64,000 nucleotides of DNA. Source: Carnegiea gigantea. Lineage: Eukaryota > Streptophyta > Magnoliopsida > Caryophyllales > Cactaceae. Made by a program: the position numbers and the translations under genes. The stretch is taken from positions 1 through 64,000 of the forward strand of contig JAKOGI010002443.1 of assembly GCA_029747015.1 (NCBI GenBank), written 5' to 3'. The notes beneath the pieces were generated by a model, which was given only the letters and a program-made list of their open reading frames with translations, was not told the origin of the DNA and did no database searches. This document shows, in pieces, positions 13,389-48,400 of the stretch (position 1 is the first letter of the stretch; each line of letters begins with the position of its first letter).

Positions 13389-13680
13389 TGCTGTGGATTT
13401 TATGTTTAGTTTTAAAACCCTTGTTTTTACTTGCAAGTGTACAAGTTTAATTATAAACTAGCGAGTATGGGGTGTCAATCCCATGAGGAACAATAGTAAT
13501 TTTAAATTTCTACTTTTCCAAAAATAAAGAATAATCCGAATGAGGAGTTTAATTACCAATATGAATTAAAGGAAAAAAAAGAGAGAGAGAGAGGAGAAAG
13601 TGTCAAGTAGAGAAAATTCAGATTAGAGAATGATTTAGGGTTTTGGATTTCACATTTGATGCAAGTATTACTTTACTAAT
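13389..13680 (-). repeat. Partial 5' LTR of the Athila-like element
   Basis: The stretch next to the primer site has the LTR-end sequence common to this branch: a short ...CCACAGCA end on the minus strand, and a GGGTGTCAATCCCATGAGGAA-like segment on the plus strand that is also seen in the LTRs at 49,130 and 54,292. It is cut at about 13,680 where the inverted-repeat arm begins. The remainder of the LTR is not found elsewhere in the window. Confidence 0.7.
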
Positions 13681-13920
13681 TCAAAAACAAGCACATAATA
13701 GGGAAGCGGACGATACGGCAGATAAAGGAGCATGTTAGACACAAGATTTTACATATGAATAAGATCTCAGGAAAATACACAAAGTATATAGATAGATTAC
13801 TTAAGTGAAGCATAGGGGCTTGGTGTGCTAAGAGTCTACCCCCCTGGTTCACCGGTGCCCTTTAAGGTTATATAGACTTGCTGTTGGTGATGCAATTTCA
13901 CCCATTCTTTGCAATATATA

Positions 13921-13922
<2 letters not shown>
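13680..13922 (+). pseudogene. L1 LINE 3' end: last 40 codons of ORF2 and 3' UTR
   Basis: From 13,686 an open frame reads NKHIIGKRTIRQIKEHV and ends KISGKYTKYIDRLLK with a TGA at 13,806-13,808. This is the C-terminus of a plant L1 ORF2. It is the mirror of the end of the L1 at 45,393-45,626. The left copy is cut at its 5' side exactly at the inverted-repeat boundary. A ~115 bp 3' UTR leads into the (AT)n tract. Confidence 0.85.

Positions 13923-13978
<56 letters not shown>
13923..13978. repeat. (AT)n microsatellite
   Basis: About 28 uninterrupted TA dinucleotides follow the L1 3' UTR. The mirror tract in the right arm (45,312-45,392) is longer, as expected of a fast-changing repeat. Confidence 0.97.
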
Positions 13979-13981
<3 letters not shown>

Positions 13982-14044
13982 GCATACATAATCAGATACA
14001 TATATACGTACATATGTATACACCTACAAAAGCACATAGATATG

Positions 14045-15262
14045 TACTATAGAAACAACAACACCACCTCCCTGTGTGGGTCTCGCTTTTCCAGGGTGTG
14101 GAGAGATTCGAATAAAGGTGACTTTATCTCTACAAACATGTCGGCCTGTGTAGAGGCTGTTTCGAAGAGACCCATAAAAAAGGATGTTGTGAAAAGATTT
14201 TAAAGTGCAAGAAGCTAAAGATAAGCCATGAAGAATGAACTAAGAAATATTAACAAAACATGTGATAGGAGTTATATGAATCGTGAGTATAATATCATGG
14301 AGAGAATTACTGTACCTTTACAAACAGAGAAAAGCTAATAATATGTCCTCCCTGATGAAAATACTACCTGTATTGAAACCTGACAAACAAAAACTTGGAA
14401 AAATTTCCAGTAGTACAGAAGGATAGAAACTACTGTACGACAATCGCATCATAGCTATGAAGCTATCTTTCTATACTCCAAGACCTTAGTCCTATCTGCC
14501 CAATTCTCTTATCCTGAGCAATGTCCTCTGTCAACCCTAAAATTATCAAGTCCTGTCTAGTCTCTTCATTCAAGCTTTTCCTTAGTCGTCCCCCACATCT
14601 TCTGCCTTCTAAGATGTTCATCTTCTTACATCTCCTCGCAGGAGCATCTGCACTGCTTCTCTTCACAAGGCCAACCCATTTGAGCCTTGTCTCTTCCATC
14701 TTATTCTCGGTAGGAGCCATTGTAACTATGTCTTTAATTACTTTATTCCTAATTCTATCCACTCTTATGCAGTCACACATCCATCTAATCATCCTTATCT
14801 TTGCAACCATCAACTTTTGAACTTATGTCCTTTCAATTAACCAACGCTATGAGCCATACAACATAGCAGGTCTAACTATCATATAATAAAATTCACCTTT
14901 TAGTCCTATAAGCATCTTGTTATCACACAACATGCCTAAAGCGTTCTTCCATTTTTGCCATCCCACTTTTATGCAATGGTTAATATCCTTACCAGTATCC
15001 CCTTTTTGTTGAATGATCGAGCACATATATTTAAACTTCTCAACCTTTGGTATTGCCATTCCATCTATGGCGACTTCTCCCCTCTCCTCTTCTCTTCCTC
15101 TGAAACCACAATGTAGGTATTTAGTTTTCAATTTGCTTAATCTGAAACCTCTAAGACTTAAGTGTCAATCTTTATCATTCTAACTTGTTGTTAACTCCAT
15201 CTTTGGTCTCATCAGTAAGGGCAATATCATCTATAAAGAACATGCACCATCATAAAATGCGT
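14045..15262 (-). pseudogene. RTE-type LINE, 3' part (left copy)
   Basis: On the minus strand the fragment begins in the reverse transcriptase catalytic block, CMFFIDDIALTDETKDG, where FIDD stands for the usual FADD, continues with KFKYMCSIIQQKGDTGKDI, GWQKWKNALGMLCDNK and YYMIVRPAMLYGS (14,847-15,131), and ends with the typical RTE tail MRMIRWMCDC..., RLKWVGLVKRSSADAPARRC and the end at 14,463. The 3' UTR to about 14,045 contains the GGTCTCTTCGAAACAGCC motif known from plant RTE elements. Endonuclease and most of RT are missing; the 5' edge abuts the (TG)n tract. A frameshift and stops separate the two open stretches. Confidence 0.88.
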
Positions 15263-15266
15263 ACAG

Positions 15267-15273
<7 letters not shown>

Positions 15274-15305
<32 letters not shown>
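15274..15305. repeat. (TG)n microsatellite
   Basis: Sixteen TG units lie at the truncated 5' edge of the RTE fragment. The mirror in the right arm is a (CA)n tract of about 49 bp. Confidence 0.97.
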
Positions 15306-15306
<1 letters not shown>

Positions 15307-16084
15307 ACGCACGCTTATGTGTGTGTGTACACATAAATATATGCATGTATGTGTATGCGCCCGCGTGCATACATCCAGGTCAATGTTGGTATAGTCAAGT
15401 GTGCAAGAATTTTATACGCCGACATGGCCCAATCCATCAAAACACAACATAACCCAACAGAAAATGTATGAATACTAATCCAGTCTATTAGAGCAAATAG
15501 TTTTATAGTAAAAGGCGTGCTGGGTAAATATAAGTAATTGGTTCATGGGTTGGGTGGATGGTAAGAATTTTTGTAAGAGTGCTTGCGTTCAATTCTTGCT
15601 GCCATCAAATTCTAGTTTCTTTTATTTTCTTTTCTAATGTTGAAAAATTTTTAAATGTTTCTTTCATTTTTCTTTTTAATCAAACAAATTACTCAAAGTT
15701 TTATTTATAATACAAAATTTTCACCAAAATTATTCATTAATCATAACAAGGTGTTATTTGATTATTATCATTATTTTACTTCCATATCATTTCTTTCTTT
15801 TTTCGGGGGCAACATTCACGTTTTTCTTTTTTGGTAAAAAGAACATATTTTATTAAAAATTTTAGTTGTTTACAAAAAAATCTACCATCTTTTTCCTTTC
15901 TAATGTTGCAAGCTTTTTAAATAGTTTGTTCATTTTTTTTAACCCTGTAAATCAGTCGAAGCACAAATTATTCGTTAAAAAAACAAGTTATTAAATTTAT
16001 TTTTTTTACCTTCCTATCCTTTTTTTATCATTTGGCAACGGTTTTCTTTTTCTTCAGAAAAAATTCTGTTTCTCATTTGCTGCT
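15306..16084. other. AT-rich sequence between RTE fragment and gypsy LTR
   Basis: This segment is mirrored at 43,244-43,995 and carries no recognisable coding domain. It has T-rich runs and lacks evident repeats. It may be what remains of the DNA into which the gypsy element inserted. Confidence 0.5.
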
Positions 16085-18625
16085 TGTAACATCCCAAACG
16101 TAACACAAGTTAATTACCTTAGTTAATCTTAAATTAAGTTAAGTGTCACATTTCAATGCAACACTTGAAATATTTATGTGATTTCAGGTTGCGACGACAA
16201 AGTATCCTCAAAATAAGACTTAATTATGCTTTCTACAAAACCATTCATAACATGTGAATAAATTATTCAGCAAGCAAGTAAATTAAAAAAATTTAAATTA
16301 AATTGGTCCATGTATAAAAAATGGTAAATATTGTAATTTTTATGGAACAAATATAATTTACCCACCTAAACTACGTTAAAAAAATAATAATTCAAATAAA
16401 TGAGGTAGAATAAATACAAGGAATATAATAGGCAAAACAAGTTAATCTCATAATCTTCTTCTAACCAAATAGGAAGACCCTAAAAATAGTTCAAATATTA
16501 ACCCAAAACAATTCTGAGATAGAAAAGAAATTCTGTTCTTGTGAACAAAATAAAAAAATATAAAAATAGCTAGATATTTGAAAGGGAATGGAATTAAAGT
16601 TTTGAGAGAAAAGAAAGAAAATTCCCTAAATTCTCTTTCCCCCCAAATTAACCACATAACCCCCTTTTAACTAAATTAGTCTGACAATCCCCCCTAACCA
16701 AAAGTGTCCTGCCCAGACCAAACCCCCCCAACTCTCTGCTTCCTTAAGCCTTCTCTACTCCTTCATGCCGGTAGCCATCGTGTCGCCAGCAGTCTGTGTG
16801 CCACCCCATCGCCGGTAGCCATGCCACCTTGGCATCCGGCCGTGCTATCGTCACCTCTTTCACCCTTTTACTTGAGTTGTTTTTTAGGTATTCGTTAGGT
16901 GAGTTCTAAGACTCTCGTCAATTGTTTCCATCATTTTGTACTTGATTTAGCTAGAAATTATGTCTATTAACATTACATGATGGTAATTTAGTACAGTTTC
17001 AAAAGTTTCAATGATGGATTTTAGTGATTGGAAGATATGGATGGTATGGGTGCTGATGGAAAAAGGAGTTTTTAGATTGGGTTGTGTTTGTGTGAATGAA
17101 AGTCTAAATGGCTTAATTGAGTTGAAATTATGAGGATTTTGTTGTGAATTTAATGAATTGATGATGGGTATATGGGTATGGTGTTTTCGACATTAAAGAG
17201 CCGGGGAGGAAGAAGAGGGACTTGAGGAGTGGAGGTAGAAGGAAAAAGGAAATGGTAAATTGGGTTTTTCTTTTGGAAATAAATGCATTTGATGTAAACT
17301 TTGGAACATATCTAGGAGAGTGGATCACATTTTTGATGGGCAAATTTAGTGAATGTGTGATTAGTAGAAATCTTAAAACTTGACTCTGGATAATCTAATA
17401 AGATGAAGGGTATATGCGTTGGGCCTAGTACTACTAGTAAAATTTAGTGTCAATCTACTCAAATAAATAATTAAAGGTTATCTACGATTATGTGTTGGTC
17501 ACTACCATCTTGATTTAATACCGAAAATGTATATTGCCTTTAAAATGAAACTAAACCCATAAATTGGGCTTTCGTAATGAAAGAAGGGCTTAATGAAATG
17601 GATAATAACAACACTCATGATAGTTGTACTAAAAATAATAATAATAATACAAAAAGAGATTTAATCATGAGCTCAATTAGATAACAATGGGGAAGTGAGA
17701 GGACAAGAAAAACACCAAGCAAAATTGTGAATCGGTTACATGTTTATGATGATAATAATAAAAAAGTTATTTAATCTGTATTGATAATGAAAGATCAATT
17801 TGAAACAGAGAAAAGTCCACTTTCGTCGTCATTGAGCCATAAATAAATATTTTACAAGAGAAAAGGGAGAGACTTTAAATTCAGGCATGTTTACTTGTTC
17901 TACCCTTCAAGAGTTCACATGTTTTTTATAATTGCTGGGTTTGATAATATATAATTGCTTAGTGAGTCGTTTTCAAGTATTGTTTTCCCACATAATCAAA
18001 TGGACCCATCAATTATCAATTATCCGGGCTTATACACTTGAATTCGCACTTCAATTCACCCACACGGCCTCAAGTCAGGCTATCTGATTGGCCTAGCAGG
18101 TTTACGCATATTCAATGATCGTAGTATACATATGAGATTATTAGTTTGGGTTCCACTTTCAGATAAGAACCAGTAACAATTTTAAAATCATTCTATTTCT
18201 CCTTGTTTTTGAACTAAAATGAATGAAAATGCGCGCGCTCTCTAAAAAATGAGTTTCTATTTTGATAGTATAGGGTTGACCATGTTGAGCTTTAGCTCAC
18301 TGTTTGAGTATTTTTTGTGTTTTTTTAGGTAAATAAATTATAAAGCCCTTACCTGGCAACACCAAAGAGGCTGGAGACAGTAAATGAAGTCTAGACAAGC
18401 TCATACTGACTTTTCCAAAGGTTAAGGTTCATTGGAATGTAACCTGTGTAGATCAGTGAGCCTTCAATTGAGTTTTGGAGTGTACCAATGTGCTCTAGTT
18501 GGTTTTTCATGCAAGTAAAAGCGCATTATATTATTTAGGAAATTAATTAAGCCTTATCCTTTGTAGGATGGCAGTAACGTCCTAGTCACAATACTTTCTT
18601 TGAGCAATTTTTAATGACCAATAGA
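16085..18625 (+). repeat. Gypsy LTR 1, left arm
   Basis: The LTR starts TGTAACATCCC and is alignable along its whole length with 25,043-27,303, for example in the opening AGTTAATTACC, the GACGACAAAGT segment and the TACCTGGCAACACCAAAGAGG segment. About 45 bp present at the end of LTR 2, including the GGGGCGTTACA terminus, are missing here, so its 3' edge merges with the primer site. It is about 280 bp longer than LTR 2, mainly because of extra sequence at 17,360-17,570. Confidence 0.82.
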
Positions 18626-18626
18626 G

Positions 18627-18638
18627 TAGTATCAGAGC
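18627..18638 (+). promoter_or_regulatory. Degenerate primer-binding site
   Basis: TAGTATCAGAGC differs at one base from the initiator tRNA-Met site, and is followed by GGTTTTAAGGTCACTGTGAG, the same leader motif as at 27,321. The LTR end and the usual spacer have been lost. Confidence 0.75.
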
Positions 18639-20626
18639 ACGGTTTTAAGGTCACTGTGAGCTATATGCTATTTATAAGTTACATTTGACTAACGGAATGT
18701 GTGGTTGATTTTTAGTTCATAAGTCTGAGTGCATATGAGGATGTTCAGATAATATTTACCTTATCCCCAATCTTAATGTTAAGGTTATTGAACTATTTAG
18801 GCAACACCATGGGACTCCATCGCTAACAAAGCATGGGAAGGAATCATTTAGTTGTCCCCTATTCATGTACGTGTCTCACGAGATACCAAGCTCATAGTGA
18901 TAACTTTGTGAAGGTCAGATTCCCATTTTGTTTAATAAGGATGACATGACTTAATGATGCAATTGCCAATTTATAAGCAATTCTTGCGATATTAAATCAT
19001 CTCTAATCTTCCATACACGGGAAATGTGCTCTATTGGAGTATGCACTAAGGTTGGACCAATATGATGAGAAGTTATTCTTGAATGAATGTGCACAGGGTC
19101 TAAGACACTCTTATAATTGATTCTCCATCGATGTTTGATTCATCATTCAACTATTCAACTTGAGGGATTATATAGTGTCATCCAGACAGGCTAAAGAAAG
19201 TTGGTAGATGTCACATGGGTCATTTGTGAAAAAGATGAGAGATACCATGAGGGTAGTCATTGATTCATTTCAAAATTATATACACTCAAGTGGGTTATTG
19301 TAAGCTATATATAGGTGCAAGACACTATATAATAAGCACGGTTTGCAATTATGTATGTGGTGAAAAGAAAAAGGATTTTTAGATGAAAGTTTTGAGCAAA
19401 TATCATGATTTTGGGGTCATTAACTGATGTCATAAGAGTGAATCATGTTATATTTGAGATATTAAAGAGGGCAATGAGTCCTTGGAGATTTTCTGAGCAT
19501 GAAAAACAAATATAAAAAAATAAGTAGAGAGTTGGTATGGCGTTATGTATTTGAGAATGTTATGTACCTAGTATGATGATGACATGGATTCTAGAACTTA
19601 GGAATTCACTAGATGGTTTACCTTCATAGTAAGATGCACATGAGCAAGCTGTAAGGAAAAGAAGCATATGTAATTTCTTCTCAGGCTTGGAGGACTATGC
19701 AATATGTCCTTTTTGGGATAAGATATACTTTGCAGATAAGGAGAAAGAAAGAAAGAAAATTCACAATCAGATGTTATCATCTGTATTCGATTAACCATCT
19801 TTGTTCAGGCTACTTTCTGGAAACTTTTTTTTAACCATTGCCTATCTTGCTTATAACTAAGATTCTTATCATTCCCTTTGCCCATGTCCTTGAATCTATT
19901 ATATCCACCCAACAATATTCCCCTTGCTCTTGGAGAATTTTTTTTAACTCGACAAGCTGGTGAACAAAGTTTTTCCTTTGTATAATATTTTTACCCCTTT
20001 CTCTGACTCTTTAGAGCTCCCTATCATATGTTCTTATAAGTTCTATCTTAAATTTCTTTAACATTTTGAGTGTAAGACTTGTTTAACTTTTACATCAATC
20101 ACCAGATCCACCTCTTGTGTCTTATAACAAATTCAACTTTGTAGCCTGGATCCTCTATTTTACTCCCTTGATCATGTCAACTATCTTTAGGTATTTCTCC
20201 TGATCCATATCTGCAAACAATGATTCTTATCGTGTTCTACATCAAAATTTTTATATACTCCTTCCTATCTTTATTCTAACCATGACAATTGCCCCAAACT
20301 AATTAGTTGAAAACTCACTATTCACTTCTTTGTAGTGATAACCAAGCCTAGCGAGTGAGATTTGGTAAATGACCAAGCCTTGTAGCAGTACGAGAGAGTA
20401 CAAATATTCGCTCATTAGTGGCCTAAAAAGGGGTGCTGTAGACTCTAATTGTGGGGCAACATCAAATCCCAGAACATAGCTGATAGGTTATGGTCATCCA
20501 TAGTGGGCATGCAATACAATTTGGAATGAAAAATGAAGGCCTCCTAGCAGGGGCAGAAAGCTAACTAAGGATCCTGGTATACTAAAATGAGATTGATGGA
20601 ACATTGGTCATAGGGTATAGGTGAAC
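18639..20626 (+). other. Decayed internal region of the gypsy element
   Basis: This stretch of about 2 kb is mirrored at 38,709-40,691. It should hold leader and gag-pol sequence but no domain is recognisable in any frame. The longest frame, 19,598-19,798 on the minus strand, has no recognisable content. The region between here and the pol tail at 24,500 is far too short for a full gag-pol, so most of the coding capacity has been deleted. Confidence 0.5.
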
Positions 20627-20631
20627 CCAAG

Positions 20632-21776
20632 TGATGCGAAGCAAGCTCCGAACTTGGGCCTACCTTTACTAGTAAGGGTCTTGACCCAAGTTGGCCCAAT
20701 TTTTACCCTAAGTCAAGGACTAGGTTCCCCTATGTCAATATTAACTTGGGGTCCTTAAGAAGGTCCAAATAGGGTTAGAAAAGGGGTTGGGCCATTTGTA
20801 ACCCTAAATAAGGAGTTAATCACTTAATCCTTCTGAAATGACCTTCCTTAGCTCATTCTCAGTTTCTGGGCAAAATAATTTGCTTCATTTTTAGCTCAGT
20901 TTTTAGCCAAAAAGTGAGCTTCAATTTTCACAAATTATAGATGGACGGAAAGCCCAAATGTCTATTTTCTAAGAGTCTGGAATCGTCCCCAAAATTACAA
21001 GTATTGAGAAAGTTATGGGCTGAATACCGAGCAAGGGTCGGTCCATGACTGGAAAATGTACGATTCTAATTATGAGCTTAATTAAGGAGGTTACAACTGG
21101 GATTAATCAGCACACGCTGATTTTTCATGCACAAGGGAAGAGTTGATTAGTGGCGTCACCTCATTGGAAGAGTTGGGCCTACTCAAGGCTCTCTAGAAGG
21201 TGGAGTATGAATCCTGGAAAATACGGCCCATAGTGATTGTAATTATCTTAAGCATCTTAATTTATTTTCTCAGGATATTTTATAAGCCTCCTACTGGTCC
21301 ACTTGCTCCACTAATGTACAACGAATTCCCTCATTCATTAGGTATTTATGGACCCAATTACCTCCATAAAAAATCAAATTCGATAAATGATATGAGAGCT
21401 TAAAGCTTAGTTTTCCTCAAAATCTCAAATTCTTTATCTGTCCTCGGAGGGTGGTGATTTGAGTTTTCCCTTTAATCTAATCCTTGCTGCTAAGGCTTTA
21501 AAGGGTTAGAGGGTAGGTTGATTTAATTTAGACGTTGGTTTAACCTTTACCCTAGATATATCCTCTTTGATTTGTCTCTTAGTTACATTTTTCAAGCATT
21601 GATTAATCTCCACTAGTGGTTTTTCTTCTTATTGGGAACTCTCTCTCTTGGTTTATCTTTGGAAAGATTGGTCTTTAACATTCACTAGGCTCACCTCCAA
21701 GGATTTCACACCTTTATTTGAACTAATGGAATTCAATCTGTTTTAATTGGCATCTAAATAAGTCCGTTCTGCATCA
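20632..21776 (+). repeat. 5' LTR of nested gag-only element
   Basis: It begins TGATGCGAAGCAAG and ends TTCTGCATCA. It is alignable with 23,335-24,494 throughout, including the shared ACTGAGCAAGGG-like and TATCCTCTTTGATTT segments. The short frame at 21,200-21,403 is LTR sequence and not a gene. Confidence 0.9.
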
Positions 21777-21778
21777 AT

Positions 21779-21790
21779 TGGCATCAGAGC
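21779..21790 (+). promoter_or_regulatory. Primer-binding site of nested element
   Basis: TGGCATCAGAGC lies two bases after the 5' LTR and differs by one base from the initiator tRNA-Met complement. The right-arm copy keeps the perfect form. Confidence 0.85.
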
Positions 21791-22216
21791 ACAATGATCT
21801 AATTTCTTAGTAAACATCCCTTCCAATCATCCTGCTGTTGGAATTGCTTAAATTTTCCCCTTTTTTATACTACTTTCTTATTAGTTCTTCATCTTTAAAT
21901 CTCTTGTCTAGTCGACAAAGAACCTTAATTATAGCCCAAACACAAATCCCAGCCTAAACACATCTCTAAAACTCCATAAAAAGCCAAAAATATGAAACCA
22001 GAAATTTGATACTCCCACCCTGTACCACTTGACACGCACATGCCAGAATACTGCATTTGAAAAAATTGACCCAAAGATTGGGCACAACCAACCCGGCCAC
22101 AGAGCACGACCAAGGGCCATCCTTTTTCACTATTGTCCTACTCGTGCTCTTACAGCACGCCTGTGCCTCCCATGTTTTGGCCTCCTTTTTTTCTTCCTTT
22201 CACCTTTCTATCAACC

Positions 22217-23150
22217 ATGGCTAATGAGATACATATGGCCATTGGTGGGTTTCAAGCTCAAATGTGAGAGTTTAGCAAGTAAATGATGTATTTGAAAAAA
22301 ACCAAGAAAGAGCCTTCTTACTTTGATGGTATTAGTTTGGATCCTGTTATCTATTTGAGATGGGTTCAAATACTTAAAGATTATTTTGAGGCTAAAGGGT
22401 GTTATAATGAAGAGAATTTCTTGATAGTTACTCAAAAACTTCAAGGTTATGCCTACTATTGGCTTAAATGCCTTAGAAGGGAGAGAGCTTTTCAAGGCGA
22501 GCCCAAAATCAAGACTTTGAGTTAGCTTAAGTTACACATAGATGTAGGATTCAACCCATCTCAACTCATTAAAGAAGAACTCCTGAAAGAAAAATCAATT
22601 ATTCTCCAAGGGAAGATATTGGTTCATGAGGAAAAGCCTATCTTGCTTGGTTTAAGATGAAAGTAAACCTATTTTGGGTTTTGATAAAGCAAGAGAAAGC
22701 TTGGCCATAGATGAGAGCTCCCTTAAAGCTATCAGTCAAATGGATTTTTACACTAGTTCCTTCTTTTGATGAAACTATAGAAAGGTTCAAGTTCAAAGGA
22801 AAGAAGAGCCTAGCAAGGTTCAAAAAGAGGCCAAGGAAGAAAATGAGAGCCTTTTAGATCTTGGAGAGAAGAAAGTTGAATCAAATACCAACTAGGGAGG
22901 TTATATTATCTATTGTACTTGAATCTCACTCTTATTCTCCCTATTTTTCCAATTTGAGAATTGAGGATGAAATCCCAAAAAAAAAAAAAAATCATCCCCA
23001 AGGTCCCATTGTCCATTAAAATAATGTCGGGAGAGAGTGCTCTTATAAGCGTCATCAAGCCACAAGTGTCACCTCTCTTAAGTATGTTGAGTTTGAGCTA
23101 TCTTATGATGAGTATGTTGAGATCTTCAATGAGCTCATGAGGTAAAGGGA
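22217..23150 (+). pseudogene. gag of nested element, broken
   Basis: From an ATG at 22,217 the product would begin MANEIHMAIGGFQAQM. After two stops the open stretch 22,283-22,525 carries EPSYFDGISLDPVIYLRWV, then LIVTQKLQGYAYYWLKCL and EPKIKTLS, the retrotransposon gag core (the D-P-x-x-Y-L-x-W start and the LxGxAxxWW-like centre). Degenerate sequence to about 23,150 continues in several frames, with an A13 run at about 22,978-22,990. Gag would form the particle. No CCHC knuckle is visible. The right-arm copy (36,197-37,239) has fewer stops in the N-terminal part. Confidence 0.78.
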
Positions 23151-23320
23151 GAGCTACTCATTGCTTTGATGTTCTTCCAAAGATCTTCAACAACTACTAC
23201 ACATTCAAGAAGAGAGGAATACATAGTACTTTAGGGGTTTTCAAACCCAAAAATAGTAAAGGGCATGCAAGATTGATGTCATGGGATTTCAACCCCAAGC
23301 ATTTGAGGGCAAATCCTCTT

Positions 23321-23334
23321 GAAGGGGGACGGTT
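23321..23334 (+). promoter_or_regulatory. Polypurine tract of nested element
   Basis: GAAGGGGGACGG precedes the 3' LTR by two bases. This is the site where plus-strand DNA synthesis would be primed. Confidence 0.75.
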
Positions 23335-24494: not shown

Positions 24495-24499
24495 CCAAG

Positions 24500-27303: not shown

Positions 27304-27306
27304 GTG

Positions 27307-27320: not shown

Positions 27321-27344
27321 AGGTTTTAAGGTCACTGTGAGCTA

Positions 27345-32030: not shown

Positions 32031-32033
32031 CAC

Positions 32034-34838: not shown

Positions 34839-34843
34839 CTTGG

Positions 34844-37116: not shown

Positions 37117-37544
37117 GGTTGATAGAAAGGGGAAAGAAAGAAAAAAAGGAGGCCAAAACATGGGAGGCACAGGCGTGCTGTAAGAGCACGAGCAGGATAA
37201 TAGTGAAAAGGGATAAGGCTTGGTCGTGCTCTGCTGCACGGGTTAGTTGTGCCAAAGCTTTGGGTCAATTTTTTCAAGTGCAGTATTCTGGCATGGACAT
37301 GCCAAGTGGTACGAGGTAGGAGTGCCAAATTTTTGGTTTCATATTTTTGGCTTTTTTTTGGAGTTTTAGAGATGTGTTTAGGCTGGGATTTGTGTTTGGG
37401 CTATAATTATGGTTCTTTGTCGACTAGATAGGAGATTTAAAGATGAAGAACTAATAAGAAAATAGTATAGCAAGGGGAAAGCTTTAAGCAATTCCAACAG
37501 CAGGATGATTGGAATGGATGTTTACCAAGAAATTGGATCATTGT

Positions 37545-37556
37545 GCTCTGATACCA
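37545..37556 (-). promoter_or_regulatory. Primer-binding site of gag-only element, right arm
   Basis: Perfect TGGTATCAGAGC on the minus strand, two bases from the LTR end. The left-arm copy has one change. Confidence 0.88.
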
Positions 37557-37558
37557 AT

Positions 37559-38703
37559 TGATGTATAACGGACTTATTTAGATGCCAATTGATACAGATT
37601 GAATTCCATTAGTTCAAATAAAGGTGTGAAATCCTTGGAGGTGAGCCTAGTGGATGTTAAAGACCAATCTTCCGAAGATAAACCAAGAGAGAGAATTCCT
37701 AATAAGAAGAAAAACCACTAATGGAGATTAATCAATGCTTGAAAAATGTAACTAAGAGACAAATCAAAGAGGATATATCTAGGCTAAAGGTTAAACCAAC
37801 ATCTTGATTAAATCAACCCACCCTCTAAAACCTTAGCACCAAGGATTAGATTAAAGGGAAGACTCAAATCACCACCCTCTTAGGAGAGATAAAGAATTTG
37901 AGATTTTGAGGAAAACCAAGCTTCAAGCTCTCATATCATTCATCAAATTTGATTTTTTATGGAGGTAATTGGGTCTATAAATACCTAATGAAAGGGGGAA
38001 TTCATTGTACATTAGTGGAGCAAGTGGACCAATAGGAGGCTTATAAAATATCCTAGGAAAATAAATTAAGATGCTTAAGATAATCACAATCACTATGAGC
38101 CATATTTTCCAGAATTCATACTCCACCTTCTAGAGAGCCTTGAGTAGGCTCAACTATTCCAATGATGTGACACCACTACTTAACTCTTCCCTTGTGCGTG
38201 AAAAATCAGCACGTGCTGATTAATCCCCAAAATTACAATAGTAACCTCCTTAATTAAGCTCATAATTAGAGTCATACATTTTCTAGTCATGGACCGACCC
38301 TTGCTCGGTATTCAGCCCATAACTTTCTCAATACTTGTAATTTTGGGGACGATTCAAGACTCTTAGAAAATAAACATTTGGGCTTTTCATCCATCTATAA
38401 TTTGTGAAAATTGAAGCTCACTTTTTGGCTAAAAACTGAGCTAAAAATGAAGCAAACTATTTTGCCCAGAAACTGAAAATGAGCTAATGAAGATCGTTTC
38501 GGGAGGATTAAGTGATTAACTCCTTATTTAGGGTTACAAATGGCCCAACCCCTTTCCTAACCCTATTTGGACCTTCTTAAGGACCCCAAGTTAATATTGA
38601 CATAGGGGGACCTAGTCCTTGAGTTAGGGTCAACATTAGGCCAACTTGGGTCAAGACTCTTACTAGTGAAGGTAGGCCTAAGTTCAAAACTTACTCCACA
38701 TCA
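37559..38703 (-). repeat. 5' LTR of gag-only element, right arm
   Basis: The LTR is 1,145 bp, the same length as its left-arm counterpart. It begins TGATGTGGAGTAAG on the minus strand and ends at TGTATAACGG's mirror followed by CATCA; it is alignable with 34,844-36,002. Confidence 0.9.
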
Positions 38704-38708
38704 CTTGG

Positions 38709-40691
38709 GTTCACTTATACCCTATGACCAATGTTCCATCAATCTCATTTTAGCATACCAAGATCCTTAGTTGGCTTTCTGCCCTTATTAGAAAGCCTTC
38801 ATTTTTCATTCCAAATTGTATTGCATGCCCGCTATGGCCATAACCTATCAGCTATGTTCTGGGATTTGATGTTGCCCCACAATTAGAGTCTACAGCACCC
38901 CTTTTTGGGCCGCTAATGCGCGGATATTTTGTACTCTCTCGTACCACTACAAGGCTTGGTCATTTACCAAATCCTACTCACTAGGCTTGGTTATCACTAC
39001 AAAGAAATGAATAGTGAGTTTTCAACTAATTAGTTTGGGGCAATTGTCATGGTTAGAGTAAAGATAGGAAGGAGTATATAAAAATTCTAATGTAGAACAT
39101 GACAAGAATCATTGTTTGTAGATATGGATCAGGAGAAATACCTAAAGATAGTTGACATGATCAAGGGATTAAAATAGAGGACCTAGGCTACAAAGTTGAA
39201 TTTATTATAAGATACAAGAGGTGGATGTGGTGATTGATGTAAAACTTAAACAAGTCTTACACTCAAAATGTTAAAGAAATTTAAGACAAAACTTATAAGA
39301 ACATGTGATAGGGAGCTCTAAAGAGTTAGAGAAAGGGGTAAAAATATTATACAAAGGAAAAGCTTTGTTCACCAGCTTGTCGAGTTAAAAAAAAATTCTC
39401 CAAGAGCAAGGGGAATATTGTTGGGTGGATATAATGGATTCAAGGACATAGGCAAAAGGGAATGATAAGCATCTTTGTTATAAGTAAGATAGGCAATGCT
39501 TAAAAAAAGGTTTCCAGAAAGTAGCCTGAACAAAGACGGTTAATCGAATACAGATGATAACATCTGATTGTGAATTTTCTTTCTTTCTCCTTATCTGCAA
39601 CGTATATCTTATCCCAAAAAGGACATATTGCATTGTCCTCCAAGCCTGAGAAGAAATGACATATGCTTCTTTTCCTTACAGCATGCTCATGTGCGTCTTA
39701 CTATTAAGGTAGACCATCTAGTGAATTCTTAGGTTCTAGAATCCATGTCATCATCATACTAGGTATATAACATTCTCAAATACATAAGCAATACAAACTC
39801 TCTACTTATTTCTTTATATTTGTTTTTCATGCTCAGAAAATCTCCAAGGACTCTTTGCCCTCTTTAATATCTCAAATAGAACATGATTCATTCTTATGAC
39901 ATTAGTCAATGACCCCAAAATCATGATATTTGCTCAAAACTTTCATCTAAAAATCCTTTTCCTTTTCACCACATACATAATTGCAAACCATGCTTATTAT
40001 GTAGTGTCTTGCATTTATATATAGCTTATAATAACCCACTTGAGTGTATATAATTTTGAAATGAATCAATGACTACCCTCATGGTGTCTCTCATCTTTTT
40101 CATAAATGACCCATGTGCCATCTACCAACTTACTTTAGCCTGTCTGGATGGCACTACATAATCCCTCAAGTTGAATAGTTGCATGATGAATCAAACATCG
40201 ATGGAGAATCAATTATAAGAGTGTCTTAGACCTTGTGCACATTCATTCAAGAATAACTTCTCATCATATTGGTCCAACCTTAGTGCATACTCCAATAGAG
40301 CACATTTCCCTTGTATGGAAGATTAGAGATGATTTAATATCGCAAGAATTGATTATAAATTGGCAATTGCATCATCAAGTCATGTCATCCTTATTAAACA
40401 AACTGGTAATTTGAACTTCACAAAGTTATCACTATGAGCTTGGTATCTCGTGAGACACGTAAATCAATAGGGGACAACTAAATGCTTCCTTCCTGTGTTT
40501 TGTTATCGATGGAGTCCCATGGTGTTGCCTAAATAGTTCATTGACCTTAACATCAAGACTGGGGATAAGGTAAATATTATTTGAACATCCTCATATGCAC
40601 TCAGACTTATGAACTAAAAATCAACCACACATTTTGCTAGTCAAATGTAACTTATAAATAGCATATAGCTCACAGTGACCTTAAAACCTGT
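38709..40691 (-). other. Decayed internal region of the gypsy element, right arm
   Basis: Mirror of 18,639-20,626. I see no recognisable domain in any frame in either arm. Confidence 0.5.
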
Positions 40692-40703
40692 GCTCTGATA
40701 CTA
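40692..40703 (-). promoter_or_regulatory. Degenerate primer-binding site, right arm
   Basis: Reads TAGTATCAGAGC on the minus strand, the same single change as at 18,627, so the change and the adjacent LTR-end deletion predate the inverted duplication. Confidence 0.75.
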
Positions 40704-40705
40704 CT

Positions 40706-43243
40706 CTGTTGGTCATTAAAAATTACTTAAGGAAAGTATTGTGACTGGGATGTTACCGCTATCCTACAAAGGATAAGGCTTAATTAATTTCCTAAATAAT
40801 ATAATGTGCTTTTACTTACATGAAAAACCAACTAGAGCACATTGGTACACTCTAAAACTCAATTGAAGGCTCATTGATCTACACAGCTTACATTGCAACG
40901 AACCTTAACCTTTGGAAAAGTCACTATGAGCTTCTCTAGACTTCATTTACTGTCTCCCGCCTCTTTGGTGTTGCCAGGTAAGGACATCATAATTTATTTC
41001 CCTAAAATATAAAACACAAAAAATATTCGAATAGTGAGCCAACGCTCAACACGGTCAACCCTATACTGTCAAAATAGAAACTCATTTTTTAGAGAGCGCG
41101 CACATTTTCATTCATTTTAGTTCGAAAACAGGGAGAAATAGAATGATTTTAAAATTGTTACTGGTTATTATCTGAAAATGAAATCCAAACTGATAATCTC
41201 ATATGTATACTACGATCATTGAATATGCATACACCTGCTACGCCAATTAGATTGTCTAACTTGAGGCAGCGTGGGTGAATCGAAGTGCGAATTGAAGTGC
41301 ATAAGCCCTGATAATTGATAATTGGTAGGTCCACTTGATTATGTGAGAAAACAATACTTGAAAAAGACTTACTAAGCAATTATATATTATCAAACTTAGT
41401 ATTTATGAAAAACATGTGAACTTTTGAAGGGTAGAACCAGTAAACATGCCTGAATTTAAAGTCTCTCCCTTTTCTTTTGTAAAATATTTATTTACGGCTC
41501 AATGACGACAAAAGTGCTCTTTCCTCTGTTTCAAATTGATCTTTCATTATCAATACGGATTAAATAACTTTTTTATTATTATCATTATAAACATGTAACC
41601 GATTAACAATTTTGCTTGGTATTTTTCTTAACCTCTCACTTCCCCATTGTTCTCTAATTGAGCTCATGATTAAATCTCTTTTTGTATTATTATTATTAGT
41701 ACGGCTGTTATTAGTGTCGTTATTATCCATTTCATTAAGCCCTTCTTTTATTGCACAAGCCCAATTTATGGGTTTAGTTTCATTTTAAAGGCGATATACA
41801 TTTTCGGTATTAAATCAAGATGGTAGTGATCCAACACATAATCGTAGATAACCTTTAATTATTTATTTGAGTAGATTGACACTAAATTTTACTGTTAGTA
41901 CTAGGCCCAACGCATATATGCTTCATCTTATTAGATTATCCAGAGTCAAGTTTCAAGATTTCTACTAATCACAAATTCACTAAATTTGCCCTCCAAAAAT
42001 GTGATCCACTTTCCCAGATATGTTCCAAAGTTTACATCAAATGCATTTATTTCCAAAAGAAAAACCCAATTTACCATTTTGTTTTTCCTTCTACCTCCAC
42101 ACCTCAAGTTCCACTTCTTCCTCCTCGGCTCTTTAATGTCGAAAACTCCATACCCATATACCCATCATCAATTCATTAAATTCACAACAAATTCCTTATA
42201 ATTTCAACTTAATTAAGCCATTTAGACTTTCATTCACACAAACACAACCCAATCTAAAAACTCCTTTTTCCATCAACACCCATACCATCCATATCTTCCA
42301 ATCACTAAAATCCATCATTGAAACTTTTGAAACTGTACTAAATTACCATTGTGTAATGTTAATAGACATAATTTCTAGCTAAATCAAGTACTAAATGATG
42401 GAAACAATTGACGAAAGTCTTAGAACTCACCTAACGAATACCTAAAAAAACAACTCAAGTAAAAGGGTGAAAGAGGTGACGATAGCACGGCTGGATGCTA
42501 GAGTGGTGTGGCTACCAGCGATGGGGTGGCATACAGACTGCTGGCAGCACGGTGGCTACTAGCATGAAGGAGTAGAGAAGGCTTGAAGGAGCAGAGAGTT
42601 GGGAGGGTTTGGTCTGGGTAGGATACTTTTGGTTGGGGGGGATTGCCACACTAATTTAATTAAAAGGGGGTTATGTCGTCAATTTGAGGGGAAAGAGAAT
42701 TTAGGGAATTTTCTTTCTTTTCTCTCAAAACTTTAATTCCATTCCCTTTCAAATATCTAGTTATTTTTATATTTTTTTATTTTGTTCACAAGAACAGAAT
42801 TTTTTTTCTATTCGGAATTGTTTTGGGTTAATATCTGAACTATTTTTAGGGTCTTCCTATTTTGTTAGAAGAAGATTATGAGATTAACTTGTTTTGCCTA
42901 TTATATTCCTTGTATTTATTCTACCTCATTTATTTGAATTATTGTTTTTTTACATTGTTTAGGTGGGTAAATTATATTTGTTCCATAAAAATTACAATAT
43001 TTACCCTTTTTTATACATGGACTAATTTAATTTAAATTTTTTTTATTTATTTGCTTGTTGAATAATTTATACACATGTTATGAATGGTTTTGTACAAAGC
43101 ATAATTAAGTCTTATTTTGAGGATACTTTGTCATCGCAACCTGAAATCACATAAATATTTCAAGTGTTGTATTGAAATGTGACACTTAACTTAATTAAAG
43201 ATTAACTAAGGTAATTAACTTGTGTTACTTTTGGGATGTTACA
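40706..43243 (-). repeat. Gypsy LTR 1, right arm
   Basis: Mirror of 16,085-18,625. The minus strand starts TGTAACATCCC, and the GGGGCGTTACA end is missing here too. The short frames at 41,158 and 41,986 lie inside the LTR. In the frame shared with 17,128-17,343, eight of 71 residues differ, in contrast to the identical LTR 2 pair. Confidence 0.82.
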
Positions 43244-43993
43244 AGCAGCAAATGAGAAATAGAATTTTTTCTGAAGAAAAAGAAAACCGTTACCAAAAGA
43301 TTAAAAAAAAAAGAAAAGGAAGGTAAAAAAAAATTTAATAACTTGTTTTGTTTAACGAATAATTTGTGCCTCGACTGATTTACAAGGTCCCAAAAAAAAT
43401 GAACAAACTATTTAAAAATCTTGCAACATTGGAAAGGAAAAAGATGATAGATTTTTTTGTAAACAACTAAACCTTTTAATAAAATATGTTCTTTTTGCCA
43501 AAAAAGAAAAACGTGAACGTTGCTCCTAAATAAGGAAAGAAATGATAGGGAAGTAAACTAATGATAATAATCAAATAACACCTTGTTATGATTAATGAAT
43601 AATTTTGGTGGAAAATTTTGTATTATAAATAAAACTTTGAGTAATTTGTTTGATTAAAAAGAAAAATGAAAGAAACGTTTAAAAATTTTTCAACATTAGA
43701 AAAGAAAAAAGAAACTAGAATTTGATGGCAGTAAGAATTGAACACAAGCACTCTTACAAAACTTCTTACCATCCACCCAACCCATGAACCAGTCACTTAT
43801 GTTTACCTAGCACGGCTTTTACTATAGAACTATTTGCTCTAATAGACTGGATTAGTATTCATACATTTTCTGTTGGGTTGTCTTGTGTTTTGATGGATTG
43901 GGCCATGTCAGCGTATAAAATTCTTGCACACCTGACAACATTGACCTGCATGTATGCATGCGGGCGTGTACGCATACATGCATATATTTATGT

Positions 43994-43995
<2 letters not shown>
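43244..43995. other. AT-rich sequence outside the gypsy element, right arm
   Basis: Mirror of 15,306-16,084; no recognisable coding sequence. The plus strand carries A-rich runs matching the T-rich runs of the left arm. Confidence 0.5.

Positions 43996-44044
<49 letters not shown>
43996..44044. repeat. (CA)n microsatellite
   Basis: About 24 CA units, longer than the mirror (TG)n tract at 15,274-15,305. Confidence 0.97.
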
Positions 44045-44045
<1 letters not shown>

Positions 44046-44054
44046 CTGTATGTA

Positions 44055-45240
44055 TTTTATGATGGTGCATGTTCTTTGTAGATGATATTGTCCTTACTGA
44101 TAGGACCAAAGATGGAGTTAACAACAAGTTGGAACGATAAACATTGAAACTTAAGTCTTAGAGGTTTCAGATTAAGCAAATTGAAAACTAAATACCTGCA
44201 TTGTGGTTTTAGAGGAAGAGAAGAGGAGAGGGGAGAAGTCACCATAGATGGAATGGCAATATCAAAGGTTAAGAAGTTTAAATATATGTGCTCGATCATT
44301 CAACAGAAAGGGAATATTGACAAGGATATTAACTATTGCACAAAAATGGGTTGGCAGAAATGGAAGAACGCTTTAGGCATGCTATGTGATAACAAGATGC
44401 CTATAGGACTAAAAGCTGGATTTTATTGTATGATAGTTAAACCTGCTATGTTGTATGGCTCATAGTGTTGGTCAATTGAAAGGATATAAGTTCAAAAGTT
44501 GATAGTTGCAAAGATGAGGATGATTAGATGGATGTGTAACTACACAAGAGTAGATAGAATTAGGAATGAAGTAATTAAAGACATTGTTACAATGGCTCCT
44601 ATCGAGAATAAGATGAAAGAGACTAGACTCAAATGGGTTGGCCTTGTGAAGAGAAGCAGTGTGGATGCTCCTGCGAGGAGATGTAGAAAGATTAACATCT
44701 TAGAAGGCAGAAGATGTAGGGGATGACTAAGGAAAAGCTTGAATGAAGAGACTAGACAGGACTTGATAATTTTAGGGTTGACAGAGGACATTGCTCAGGA
44801 TAGAAGAATTCGACAGATAGGACTAAGGTCTTGGAGTATAGAAAGATAGCTTCATAGCTGTCATGCAGTTGCCGTACAGTAGTTTCTATCCTTCTATGCT
44901 ACTAAAATTTTTCCAAGTTTTTGTTTGTCAGGTTTCAATACAGGCAGTATTTTCAGCTTTCCTCTTTTTACAAAGGTATAGTAATTCTCTCCATGATATT
45001 ATACTTACGATTCATATAACTCCTATCACATGTTTTGTTAATATTTCTTAGTTCATTCTCCATGGCTTATCTTTAGTTTCTTCCACTTTAAAATGTTTTC
45101 ACAACATCTTTTTTATCGGTCTCTTCGAAACAGCCTCTACACAAGCCGAGATGTTTGCAGAGATAAGGTCGCCTTCATTCGAACCTCTCCACACCCTTGG
45201 AAAGCGTGACCCACAAAGGGAGGTGGTGTTGTTGTTTCTG
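44055..45240 (+). pseudogene. RTE-type LINE, 3' part (right copy)
   Basis: The plus-strand mirror of 14,045-15,262. It shows FVDDIVLTDRTKDGVNNKLE, closer to the family's FADDIVL than the left copy, then KFKYMCSIIQQKGNIDKDI, CMIVKPAMLYGS (44,181-44,465), and MRMIRWMCNY, RLKWVGLVKRSSVDAPARRC (44,499-44,726). The 3' UTR carries GGTCTCTTCGAAACAGCC at about 45,117. Stops occur at different places from the left copy, so both arms have drifted independently. Confidence 0.88.
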
Positions 45241-45311
45241 TAGTATATATCTGTGCGCATGTATGGGTGTATGCATATGTATGTATGTATGTATCTGATT
45301 ATGTATGCAAC

Positions 45312-45317
45312 TATATA

Positions 45318-45392
<75 letters not shown>
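45312..45392. repeat. (AT)n microsatellite at the L1 3' end
   Basis: About 40 TA units with one early TG interruption. It lies directly after the L1 3' UTR and before the RTE 3' end. Apparent frames rich in Ile and Tyr are artefacts of this tract. Confidence 0.97.
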
Positions 45393-45394
<2 letters not shown>

Positions 45395-45497
45395 CAAAGA
45401 ATGGGTGAAATTGCATTACCCACAGCAAGTATATATAACCTTAAAGGGCACTGGTGAACCAGGAGGGTAGACTCTTAGCACACCCAGCCCCTATGCT

Positions 45498-48400
45498 TCA
45501 CTTAAGTAATCTATCTACATACTTTGTGTATCTTCCTGAGATCTTATTCATATGTGAAATCCTGTGTCTAACATGCTCCTTTATCTGATGTATTATCCGC
45601 TTCCCTGTTATGTGCTTGTTGTTGAAGGTTGCATGATTCCTTATGCTCTAAATATGGTAAATGGATGCAGCAACTACTGCACATATGATCTGTTTCTCTA
45701 CTTTGGGAGATCTAGTCTTGAGAAGTGAATCCACAAATGCTTGACTATTCTGTGCTTGAAGGAGGGAAATCCACCAGATTTCCTTAGCATAAGTGCATTC
45801 AAAGAATAGATGATCCTCATTCTCTTGAGCTTGTTTACAGAGGCTGTAGGTGGTATCCTTGTGGGGGTCAAACCTGGACAGCTTTCACTTAGTGGGCAGC
45901 CTGTGATGGATGGAAATCCATAATATGAATGCACGCTTGGTGTAGTTGACCTTGCCCAAATGATTTTTGCCCAGTTCATTTTTGTTCTATCCCCCATTAG
46001 TCAGGAGTATTCTTTTGTGATCTTGTAAGTGTCTTCTCCCTACTATTCCCATGTAATGGGGTTGGAACATCCTCCCTTAAAGAGCTCCTTGATCTAGTAT
46101 ATCTTTTTCTAATACCAGCTGCTGTCAGGGGGGAGTCGTCCCACCATGTATGATTTTTTAGGTATCTACTATGGATCCACTTTACCTAAAGGATGTCTTT
46201 CTTGCGTGCAACAGCCCATACTAGCTTGGTAATCAGGGCTTTGTTGCAGGTCTCATAGTCTTTCAAACCTAGGCCAACTTGGACTTTTGGTAGACAAACA
46301 TGTTACCATGAGATATGGGGCATCCTTTCAAACTCTGCTGAGCTACTCCATAGGTAGTTCCTACAGATTTTTGTAATGGTGTCCACTACCTCTGCTGGCA
46401 GTATGAAGATTGGTGCCCAGTATGAGTACATGCCAAATAAGACATTGTTGATCAGCACAGCTCTCCCTGCAAAAAAAAGGCTTCTAGTTGCCCAAACCTT
46501 CACCTTTACAGTAATTTTCTCCACAAGACCTCTACACTCCATTTTTGTAAGCCTACTTGTTGTAATTAGTACCCCTAGGTATTTCACAGGGAAGGAAGAT
46601 TCAAATAGCCCTGTAACCTCCATACATTTTGCTTGGAGATCATGAGAGGTGCCACCAAAGACCATTTGGGATTTCCGAATGTTTGCCTTAAGGCCTGCAC
46701 AATCATGGAACTTTGTCAGTGTATGCATGATATGTTGTAAAGATTTCAAGTCAGCTTTGCAGAATATGATGAGATCATCTGTAAATATTAAGTGGGTAAG
46801 CCTTAATTTCTGACATTGAGGATGATACTTGAAATCTTTTTCCTGCCCCATCAAATGCATTAGTCTTGAGAGATACTCCATGCAAATAACAAAAAGTAAG
46901 GAGGAGAGAGGTTCTCCTTGCCTGATCCCCCTTCCTCCAATAAATCTCCCCTGGTCTTAACCATTAATATGAATTTTGAAACTGACTGAGGTAACACATG
47001 TCATGACCTACTTGGTAAACACAGTTGGAAATTTAAGAGCTTCTAGCATTTCTCTTATAAATTCCCAATGAATGGAGTCAAATGCCTTTTATAGGTCAAT
47101 TTTCAGAATGCATCTTAATGAGATATGCTTTCTTTGATAGCCTCTTGCAATGTCATGGAAAATCAAAACATTATACAGGAGCTCTCTTCCCCTTACAAAA
47201 GCACCCTAACTTTAATGCATGATACTAGGCAAGATAGCTTTAATCCTTTGGCATAGTAGTTTGGAAATGCATTTATATAACACATTGCAGCAAGAGATGG
47301 GTCCAAATTTAGTGGCTGATTAAGGGTGGTCCACCTTAGAAAGCACAAGTAACTTTGTTTCACTTATTTGCCTTAGGAGAGAGCCTGTCTGAAAGAAGGT
47401 TTGGATTGCTGAGCATACCAAAGGGCCTGTTTTGCTTCAAGTGGTTTTGAAAAAACCACTATTATAACCATCTGATCCAAGGGATTTTGTATTGGGGATT
47501 GAGAAAATAGCATCCCTTATGTCTTTATCAGTGACGTTTTGGCATATTTGGACTTGTTGTTCTATAGAAAGAACATAACCTTGGCTAATTACCTCCTTGT
47601 TGAGTGAAGATCTAGATGATGATTGCTCTCCCATTAGCTTTTTATAGAAATGAAGCAAGACATTTCTAACTTGCTCAAAGCCCTCAACCTAGGTACCCTA
47701 ATCATCCTTGATAGTATAGACGTGGGTTGAAAGTTTCGTTTGCTTGGCTTTAGCAAAGAAAAAGCTAGTGTTGTCATCTCCTTGGGTTATCCACTCCATT
47801 TTTTATTGCTGTTGCATTAAGGACAGGCTAGATAAGAGGATATCAATGTATATTTCTCTTGCCTCCTTCTCTTGTTGCTACAGGTGCATATTATAGGGAT
47901 CATCCTGCAGGGTAGATTGTATCCTGTTAAGCTCACACCTTGCCTTGTTTTGTTGGAATCTTAGGTCTGCAAAGTGATCCTTGTTAAGACTCCTAAGCTT
48001 GGTTTTGATTTGTGCCAAATACCTCCCTAACTACTGCAGTGAGATTGGACCCCCATGAGCAGCAATCTCTGTGTTGATAATAGTCCAAAAATCCCTATGC
48101 TTAGTCCACATGTCGTAATATTGGAAGCATGGTTTTGGTTTGGTGGAGGTAAGGAAGAGGATGAGCAGAGGGTTGTGGTTAGAAAGGCCACTGTTAAGAT
48201 ATTTGCAATGTGTGTAATCAAATGTATCCCACCAATAGGCATTGCTAAAAGCCCTGTCAGTTATGCTTCTTATAGTCTTATTAGTCCAAGAGAAGTAAGA
48301 CCCTGACCAATTCATCTCTTGCAGTTCACATGTGTCAGTGAAATTGGCCATGTCTTCCAGCTCATGGTCAGTCACATCATTCCCCCCTTGCTTGTCTGCT

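What the first reader, a model, noticed from the sequence alone, without database searches (positions are those of the whole stretch)
13680..45626. Giant inverted repeat: two 15.7 kb arms around a 517 bp spacer
Seen directly: paired landmarks (RTE fragment, four LTRs, two target duplications, GC-rich block, core repeats) sit at mirror positions whose sums stay between about 59,306 and 59,337 along the whole length. Established: palindromes of this size are unstable and rare in eukaryotic chromosomes and are usually short-lived or corrected by gene conversion. Several percent divergence argues against a fold-back sequencing artefact, which would give nearly identical arms.
Basis: seen in the sequence. 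Interest (0 to 1): 0.92.

Follow-up and report, generated by a model that had tools for sequence, protein, structure and literature searches.

The report
Ancient DNA palindrome still copying itself
A 15.7-kb stretch of transposon-filled DNA, probably from a plant, sits beside its own mirror-image copy (93% alike); the copy was likely made in one error-prone DNA-repair event a few million years ago, and a 2,123-letter stretch where the two arms are perfectly identical likely records recent copying of one arm onto the other.

Summary
The palindrome is real in the assembly: arms 13,680-29,413 and 29,930-45,626 align end to end at 93.3% around a 516-bp spacer.

(1) Polarity. The right arm reads as the source: its outer edge lies inside a LINE that runs on into the flank. 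The left arm is an inverted copy joined inside an LTR; matching LTR sequence resumes nearly in register on its other side.

(2) Birth. The core holds a tandem duplication of about 0.78 kb of that LTR with a 214-bp filler from an unrelated repeat. The four distinct junctions share 3-5 bp with their parents. The four core copies give a nearly star-like tree, so tandem and inverted duplication are about the same age. A chain of replication template switches (MMBIR/FoSTeS type) explains this best.

(3) Maintenance. Outside one tract the arms differ at 6.55% of sites, with a bias fitting methylated DNA. Inside it 2,123 bp are identical; 2,000 simulations gave at most 230. Arm-to-arm gene conversion, within about 50-100 ky on recalled rates, is the simplest cause.

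No reads were available, so an assembler-made identical tract is not excluded.

The parts
13680..29413 (-). Left arm: reads as the derived, inverted copy of the right arm
   Evidence: 93.3% identical to the reverse complement of 29,930-45,626; its outer end is a chimeric LTR/LINE junction
29930..45626 (+). Right arm: reads as the source copy, continuous with its flank
   Evidence: LINE copies elsewhere run through 45,626 without a break, 6 of 6 examined
29414..29929 (.). Spacer, 516 bp: first part of one core unit (filler X plus the start of the LTR segment), with no partner in the left arm
25310..27432 (.). Identical tract, left copy (2,123 bp, zero differences)
31905..34027 (.). Identical tract, right copy
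   Evidence: exact reverse complement of 25,310-27,432
8855..13685 (-). LTR element (Gypsy-type by my reading of its frames; the lineage name is recalled): internal part to about 13,395 and the first about 290 bp of its 5' LTR, cut at the left junction
   Evidence: about 85% identical to copies on C1248, C215 and C539, with an LTR pair of 1.83 kb on C1248; reverse transcriptase RVT_1 at 9,192-9,710; no Pfam family in three other frames
13680..13684 (.). Junction J1: LTR joined to inverted LINE tail, shared TTCAA
28767..28979 (-). Filler X, inverted copy in the left arm
   Evidence: matches seven examined dispersed loci over X only
28980..29411 (-). P: partial inverted copy of the LTR segment at the inner end of the left arm
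29412..29414 (.). Junction J2 (centre): inverted LTR segment to filler X, shared TAA
29415..29617 (+). Filler X, first forward copy, lacking its first bases
29618..30383 (+). U2: LTR segment, first forward copy
30384..30597 (+). Filler X, second forward copy (214 bp); left join shares GGAAA, right join shares GGT
30598..31984 (+). U3 and the remainder of the LTR out to its terminus
   Evidence: matches the C1248 LTR at 188119-187392 and at 186806-186678 in the same order
45300..48492 (-). LINE; its 3' end lies in the right arm and its body in the right flank
   Evidence: RVT_1 at 46,306-46,956 and zf-RVT at 45,651-45,884; copies elsewhere
20633..24494 (+). LTR element nested in the arm, LTRs about 1.15 kb and 82% alike, target duplication CCAAG; mirrored in the right arm, so older than the duplication

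Best explanation
This is an inverted duplication in the assembly: the left arm reads as an inverted copy of the 15.7 kb to its right, which a broken replication end likely made by switching templates several times at short shared sequences (MMBIR/FoSTeS type), and one 2.1-kb tract was likely overwritten much later by gene conversion between the arms. Shown: the arms, their continuity or break with flanking elements, the filler, the shared bases at the junctions, the near-equal divergence of the core copies, and the identical tract. Inferred order of steps: a break inside the LTR (J1); a switch by TTCAA into the LINE about 13.6 kb beyond the LTR, in inverted orientation; copying back towards the break; in the core, switches by GGT and GGAAA into and out of a foreign repeat (filler X), which also gave the 0.98-kb tandem unit; a second inverted switch by TAA (J2) that would restore the original direction and keep the chromosome viable. 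The arms then decayed independently (K2P 0.069), with no gap over 25 bp. Later pairing of the arms, intramolecular or between sisters, would have homogenised one tract.
For: Arms. Polarity: LINE copies pass through 45,626 in 6 of 6 examined loci while the left copy stops at 13,680; the LTR left of J1 ends at C1248 position 188221 and LTR sequence resumes in the core at about 188125, same orientation, and reaches the LTR terminus. Filler: 37 of 40 scored matches to X lie outside the window, and 7 of 7 examined match the window over X only. Microhomology: 5, 5, 3 and 3 bp at the four distinct junctions, Fisher-combined chance 1.2e-4. Same age: of 50 two-state variable sites in the four core copies, 47 are private to one copy and 0 support the split U1+U3 | P+U2 expected if the tandem duplication were clearly older. 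Divergence looks biological: 631 transitions, 253 transversions; such transitions are seen at 18-21% of CG, about 13% of CHG and 5% of CHH cytosines, alike in both arms; 39 gaps against 884 substitutions. Conversion: 2,123 identical bp that start inside one LTR and end inside another; the simulated longest run has mean 126 and maximum 230 in 2,000. Two copies: the first 770 bp of 15,300-16,300 match just the two arms among 40 scored matches.
Against: The ML tree groups U1 with U2 (support 88/84) and seven sites show a derived state shared by U1 and U2; a pure one-event star predicts none, so some core conversion or parallel change is needed. That the LTR pieces left of J1 and in the core come from one and the same LTR rests on register and orientation: their identities to other copies correlate negatively (rho -0.58 over 31 rows, 7 of which repeat another row's LTR, and biased by how the loci were found; -0.40, p 0.10 in the 18 rows found with the left piece, one of 19 dropped for equal values). 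The identical filler joins in both arms mean that part of the core was itself copied, so two closely spaced events cannot be told from one. Parent sequences at the junctions are inferred from relatives 80-90% alike. No reads were seen. Searches of 4,000-5,200 and 20,200-20,900 did not complete.
Confidence: 0.7

Rival explanations
1. Two or more separate events: a tandem duplication with filler formed first, and an inverted copy of the region was pasted in later by end-joining.
For: The same filler joins occur in both arms, so they were formed before, or during, the inverted copying. U1 and U2 group together, which no simple order predicts.
Against: 0 of 50 sites support the U1+U3 | P+U2 split that an older tandem duplication would leave; the 95% upper limit on that branch is about 0.7% against 6.55% between the arms. 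The central and left breakpoints fall in one small region of the LTR.
Confidence: 0.19
2. Assembly artefact: a fold-back or chimeric read created the palindrome, or the assembler collapsed the 2.1-kb tract.
For: No reads could be examined. Sharp tract edges are also what a local collapse would give. The contig carries 5,000 N further right.
Against: Substitution-dominated, CG- and CHG-biased differences; two copies 6.5% apart are not expected from one folded molecule; the left end joins a different element, not a mirror continuation; no second near-identical copy of the arm marker or the right flank among the matches scored.
Confidence: 0.07
3. Breakage-fusion-bridge or hairpin-capped fold-back inversion.
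For: It gives large inverted duplications with short spacers (recalled).
Against: Such a palindrome forms at a broken chromosome end and is not expected to return to the same LTR; here the copy is interstitial and flanked nearly in register by LTR sequence, and filler from a third repeat is present.
Confidence: 0.04
4. A giant mobile element with terminal inverted repeats (fold-back element).
For: Long inverted arms with a short middle.
Against: The outer ends fall inside a LINE and inside an LTR, and the shared TTCAA reads as junction overlap, not as a flanking target duplication; only this locus was found for the arm marker.
Confidence: 0.01

Closest known systems
Willow (Salix purpurea) W-chromosome palindromes, PMC7023750 (passages read)
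   Same: Plant nuclear palindromes with arms of about 20 kb and a kb-scale spacer (W.P1); described as likely millions of years old; gene conversion evidence limited to a part (a 3-kb region without arm differences).
   Different: The shared willow arms are over 99% alike on average (96-99% over most of the added arms of W.P2), gene-bearing and sex-linked. Here the arms are 93% alike, made of repeats as far as seen, of unknown linkage, with one sharply bounded tract and a readable birth scar.
MMBIR/FoSTeS rearrangements (Hastings et al. 2009, PMC2621351; passages read)
   Same: Inverted duplications mixed with other duplications and sequence from elsewhere, 2-5 bp microhomology at junctions; the model says a second inverted switch would restore a viable chromosome.
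   Different: Described there from human disease and model organisms; here an old event inside nested plant-type retroelements.
Chromoanagenesis during Arabidopsis genome elimination, PMC4461816 (passages read)
   Same: Plant rearrangements with 2-15 bp microhomology at part of the junctions and inverted joins.
   Different: Chromosome-scale, new and experimental; here one local old event.
Mammalian X-chromosome palindromes, PMC8981503 (search listing and start of abstract only)
   Same: Arm-to-arm gene conversion.
   Different: Frequent conversion keeps those arms above 99%; here conversion is visible in one tract only.
Poplar sex-region repeats, PMC7465354 and PMC9636151 (search listing and start of abstract only)
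   Same: Plant papers that hold the words palindrome and gene conversion.
   Different: Not read further; arm length and identity not compared.

Membership tests
Chromosomal palindrome | Long inverted repeats with a spacer much shorter than the arms | tested here: met
   15.7-kb arms, 516-bp spacer
Palindrome with arm-to-arm gene conversion | Stretches of arm identity far above the background | tested here: met
   2,123 bp identical against 6.55% divergence elsewhere
Palindrome with arm-to-arm gene conversion | Fixed differences from a sister species without arm differences in the tract | not testable with these tools
   no related genome is held (stated in the answer)
MMBIR/FoSTeS product | Microhomology of 2-5 bp at junctions | tested here: met
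   TTCAA, GGAAA, GGT and TAA; combined chance 1.2e-4
MMBIR/FoSTeS product | Templated insert from elsewhere at a junction | tested here: met
   filler X
MMBIR/FoSTeS product | All parts arise in one event | tested here: inconclusive
   star-like site pattern, but a U1+U2 grouping at 88/84
Transposon with terminal inverted repeats | Target-site duplication flanking the whole unit | tested here: not met
   ends lie in LTR and LINE; the shared TTCAA reads as junction overlap
Long-hairpin small-RNA locus | Transcript through the spacer processed to small RNAs | not testable with these tools
   no RNA data

The most novel reading that the evidence does not exclude
A single repair accident in a retroelement-rich plant chromosome made a 32-kb palindrome together with a tandem repeat and a captured foreign fragment; it has survived millions of years, and its arms, 6.5% diverged, still recombine in 2-kb patches. 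Large palindromes would then be durable and partly self-correcting in ordinary transposon DNA, without genes or sex linkage.
Probability: 0.48. Interest if true: 0.65.

Novelty: new member of a known kind. Interest (0 to 1): 0.55.

Why it matters
Large palindromes are thought to be unstable, and their origin is easily erased by the conversion that maintains them. Here both records seem to remain: the junctions of birth are legible, and one identical tract stands out against decayed arms. That would allow direct tests of how long such structures last, how much mismatch arm-to-arm conversion tolerates in plants, and how long conversion tracts are.

Tried and rejected
Fold-back transposon: rejected, because the ends lie inside a LINE and an LTR with no flanking duplication seen. 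Recombination between inverted transposons: rejected, because J1 has only 5 bp of overlap. The identical tract as a recent insertion in both arms: rejected, because it begins inside one LTR and ends inside the next element. Other conversion tracts: none seen; the longest other identical run is 117 bp if gaps are ignored and 85 bp if they count, within the simulated range (mean 108, 95% limit 140), and window variance is 1.2-1.6 times random. Test of whether the two LTR pieces share one origin by their identities to other copies: unhelpful or against. A role as a small-RNA hairpin was considered but could not be tested. Pfam gave no family for 7 of 7 frames scanned inside the arms (5, 2). Eight literature searches (one search found no paper) gave nothing closer than the willow case among what was listed; poplar papers in the lists were not read. 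That no other plant case exists is not claimed.
Full report
What was checked. The window is the first 64,000 bases of contig C2443 (109,490 bp) of a 1.13-Gb assembly. The source is unnamed. It is probably a plant: among 24 relatives of the LINE reverse transcriptase 20 carry no name and the four named ones are from Solanum, Nicotiana, Humulus and Carnegiea, and cytosine decay is raised at CHG sites, which I recall as a plant methylation context. Self-alignment confirms the inverted repeat: 13,680-29,413 against 29,930-45,626, 93.31% over 15,801 columns, spacer 516 bp.

Which arm is original. On the right, the arm's edge at 45,626 falls inside a LINE on the minus strand (RVT_1 at 46,306-46,956, zf-RVT at 45,651-45,884). 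Six other LINE copies examined all run through that point. The left arm holds only the LINE's last part and stops at 13,680. On the left, the flank is an LTR element (8,855-13,685; RVT_1 at 9,192-9,710; Gypsy-type is my reading of the frames, not a call) that ends about 290 bp into its 5' LTR. On C1248 this LTR is 1.83 kb long; on C215 it is at least 2.05 kb, the fetched stretch beginning inside it; on C539 it matches in two pieces of about 1 kb each. LTR sequence of the same family resumes in the right half of the core, in the same orientation and almost in register (left piece ends at C1248 188221, core resumes at about 188125), and reaches the LTR terminus at about 31,984. Leaving the left arm out, one reads LTR element, LTR, old flank, LINE in order. 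So the left arm reads as an inverted copy put into an LTR. That both LTR pieces belong to one LTR is likely but not proven: their identities to other copies did not support it (rho -0.58 over 31 rows, 7 of them repeats of another row's LTR, loci picked by one query or the other; -0.40, p 0.10, over 18 of the 19 rows found with the left piece).

The core. Unit U (about 0.98 kb) is present as U1 (inverted, 27,997-28,969), U2 (29,413-30,388), U3 (30,394-31,366) and a partial inverted copy P (28,975-29,413). Each full U is about 777 bp of the LTR plus a filler X. X is not part of this LTR in the copies aligned: it matches dispersed loci (40 scored of 208 candidates, 3 of them in the window). In 7 of 7 loci read, the match to the window is limited to X, 30,384-30,597, with other sequence on both sides. 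No X-to-LTR join was seen outside this locus (7 loci; 40 scored LTR candidates). Junctions and shared bases: LTR to LINE, TTCAA; LTR to X, GGAAA; X to LTR, GGT; inverted LTR to X at the palindrome centre, TAA. With window base composition the combined chance of 5, 5, 3 and 3 bp is 1.2e-4. The parents are inferred from relatives, so single bases could be off. About 95 bp of LTR between the two breakpoints is absent from the copies here.

Timing. In the stretch shared by U1, U3, P and U2 there are 50 two-state variable sites: 47 private to one copy, 2 for U1+U2 | U3+P, 1 for U1+P | U3+U2, 0 for U1+U3 | P+U2. An older tandem duplication would leave sites of the last kind. Pairwise identity among core copies is 92.5-95.0%, the range of the arms. 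Against a pure star, seven sites have a derived state shared by U1 and U2 (8 outgroup rows, two pairs of which are the same LTR), and the tree groups them at 88/84. P has letters at three of these seven sites and the derived base at one. Small conversions in the core or parallel changes could cause this.

Divergence and the tract. Outside 25,302-27,432 (a cut that drops two substitutions next to the tract edge), and from 13,686 inward, 884 of 13,493 ungapped columns differ (6.55%; K2P 0.069; 631 transitions, 253 transversions). With rates of 7e-9 to 1.5e-8 per site per year (recalled, not from a call) this is 4.9-2.3 million years. The arms carry 39 gaps, 20 of them of 1 bp and the longest 25 bp, so no private transposon. 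The nested element 20,633-24,494 has the target duplication CCAAG in both arms and so predates the copy. Inside 25,310-27,432 (right 31,905-34,027) there is no difference in 2,123 bp. Randomly placed differences give a longest run with mean 126 and maximum 230 in 2,000 trials. The sparsest window of 2,123 columns on the outer side has 116 differences, gaps counted, and the 2,002 columns on the inner side have 193. The tract starts inside one LTR and ends in the first part of the next one, so it is no insertion. Gene conversion between arms is the simplest cause; zero differences puts it within about 50-100 thousand years on the same rates. A local collapse by the assembler would look alike and needs reads to exclude.

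Copy number. In 15,300-16,300 the first 770 bp match only the two arms (40 scored of 262 candidates). The right flank 48,500-49,150 has no second close copy (second-best match 73% identical over 628 bp, highest other identity 79% over 349 bp; 40 scored of 133). This speaks against a misjoined second haplotype. The searches of the left flank (4,000-5,200) and of a second arm marker (20,200-20,900) did not complete.

Mechanism. A chain of template switches from one broken end accounts for inverted copy, tandem unit, foreign filler, microhomology and near-equal ages with one assumption. MMBIR as proposed in PMC2621351 (passages read) includes inverted duplications mixed with other changes, 2-5 bp overlaps, and a second inverted switch that would restore a viable chromosome. 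The order of switches is inferred. Two events close in time remain possible (0.19).

Known relatives and novelty. Willow W-chromosome palindromes (PMC7023750, passages read) are the nearest plant case found in eight searches. They are gene-bearing, mostly over 99% alike and sex-linked, with conversion evidence in a 3-kb region. This locus is a new member of that kind, unusual in being made of repeats as far as seen, strongly diverged, and legible in its birth. No function is shown. The plainest view is that it is a by-product of repair, its arms kept in weak contact by conversion. Changes made on re-checking: the odds of the best reading and of the novel case were lowered slightly (0.72 to 0.70, 0.50 to 0.48) because the LTR test against one-LTR origin rests on fewer distinct copies than first written and stays unresolved.

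Noticed in passing
window 12288-12394 (+): Rfam snoR71 match (42 bits, cut-off 40) inside the left LTR element's internal region; none at the gathering score in three 10-kb loci that hold other copies of the family, so probably chance.
   Followed up: partly
window 56897-64000, continuing to C2443:67334: Direct repeats 56,897-58,496 and C2443:65,736-67,334 are 97% identical, probably the LTRs of a young Copia-type element (name recalled); integrase and gag-pre-integrase domains at 62,130-63,944.
   Followed up: no
window 49130-55724: Direct repeats 49,130-50,564 and 54,292-55,724 (91.5%), probably the LTR pair of another element.
   Followed up: no
window 16085-18625 and 25048-27350: Two related LTR-like stretches about 80% alike, each followed by a sequence resembling a tRNA-Met primer site (motif recalled), so an LTR-internal-LTR-internal order rather than a simple element.
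   Followed up: partly
window 13914-13978, 45312-45392, 56637-56808: Long (TA)n runs; the first two follow the LINE tail in the two arms and differ in length, the third lies outside the arms.
   Followed up: no
L015, C539:72363-72959: Another LTR copy of the same family carries a 299-bp tandem duplication, 100% identical, so this LTR may rearrange elsewhere too.
   Followed up: no
C2443, about 72.5-77.5 kb: 5,000 N in the contig beyond the window, a gap or withheld stretch.
   Followed up: no
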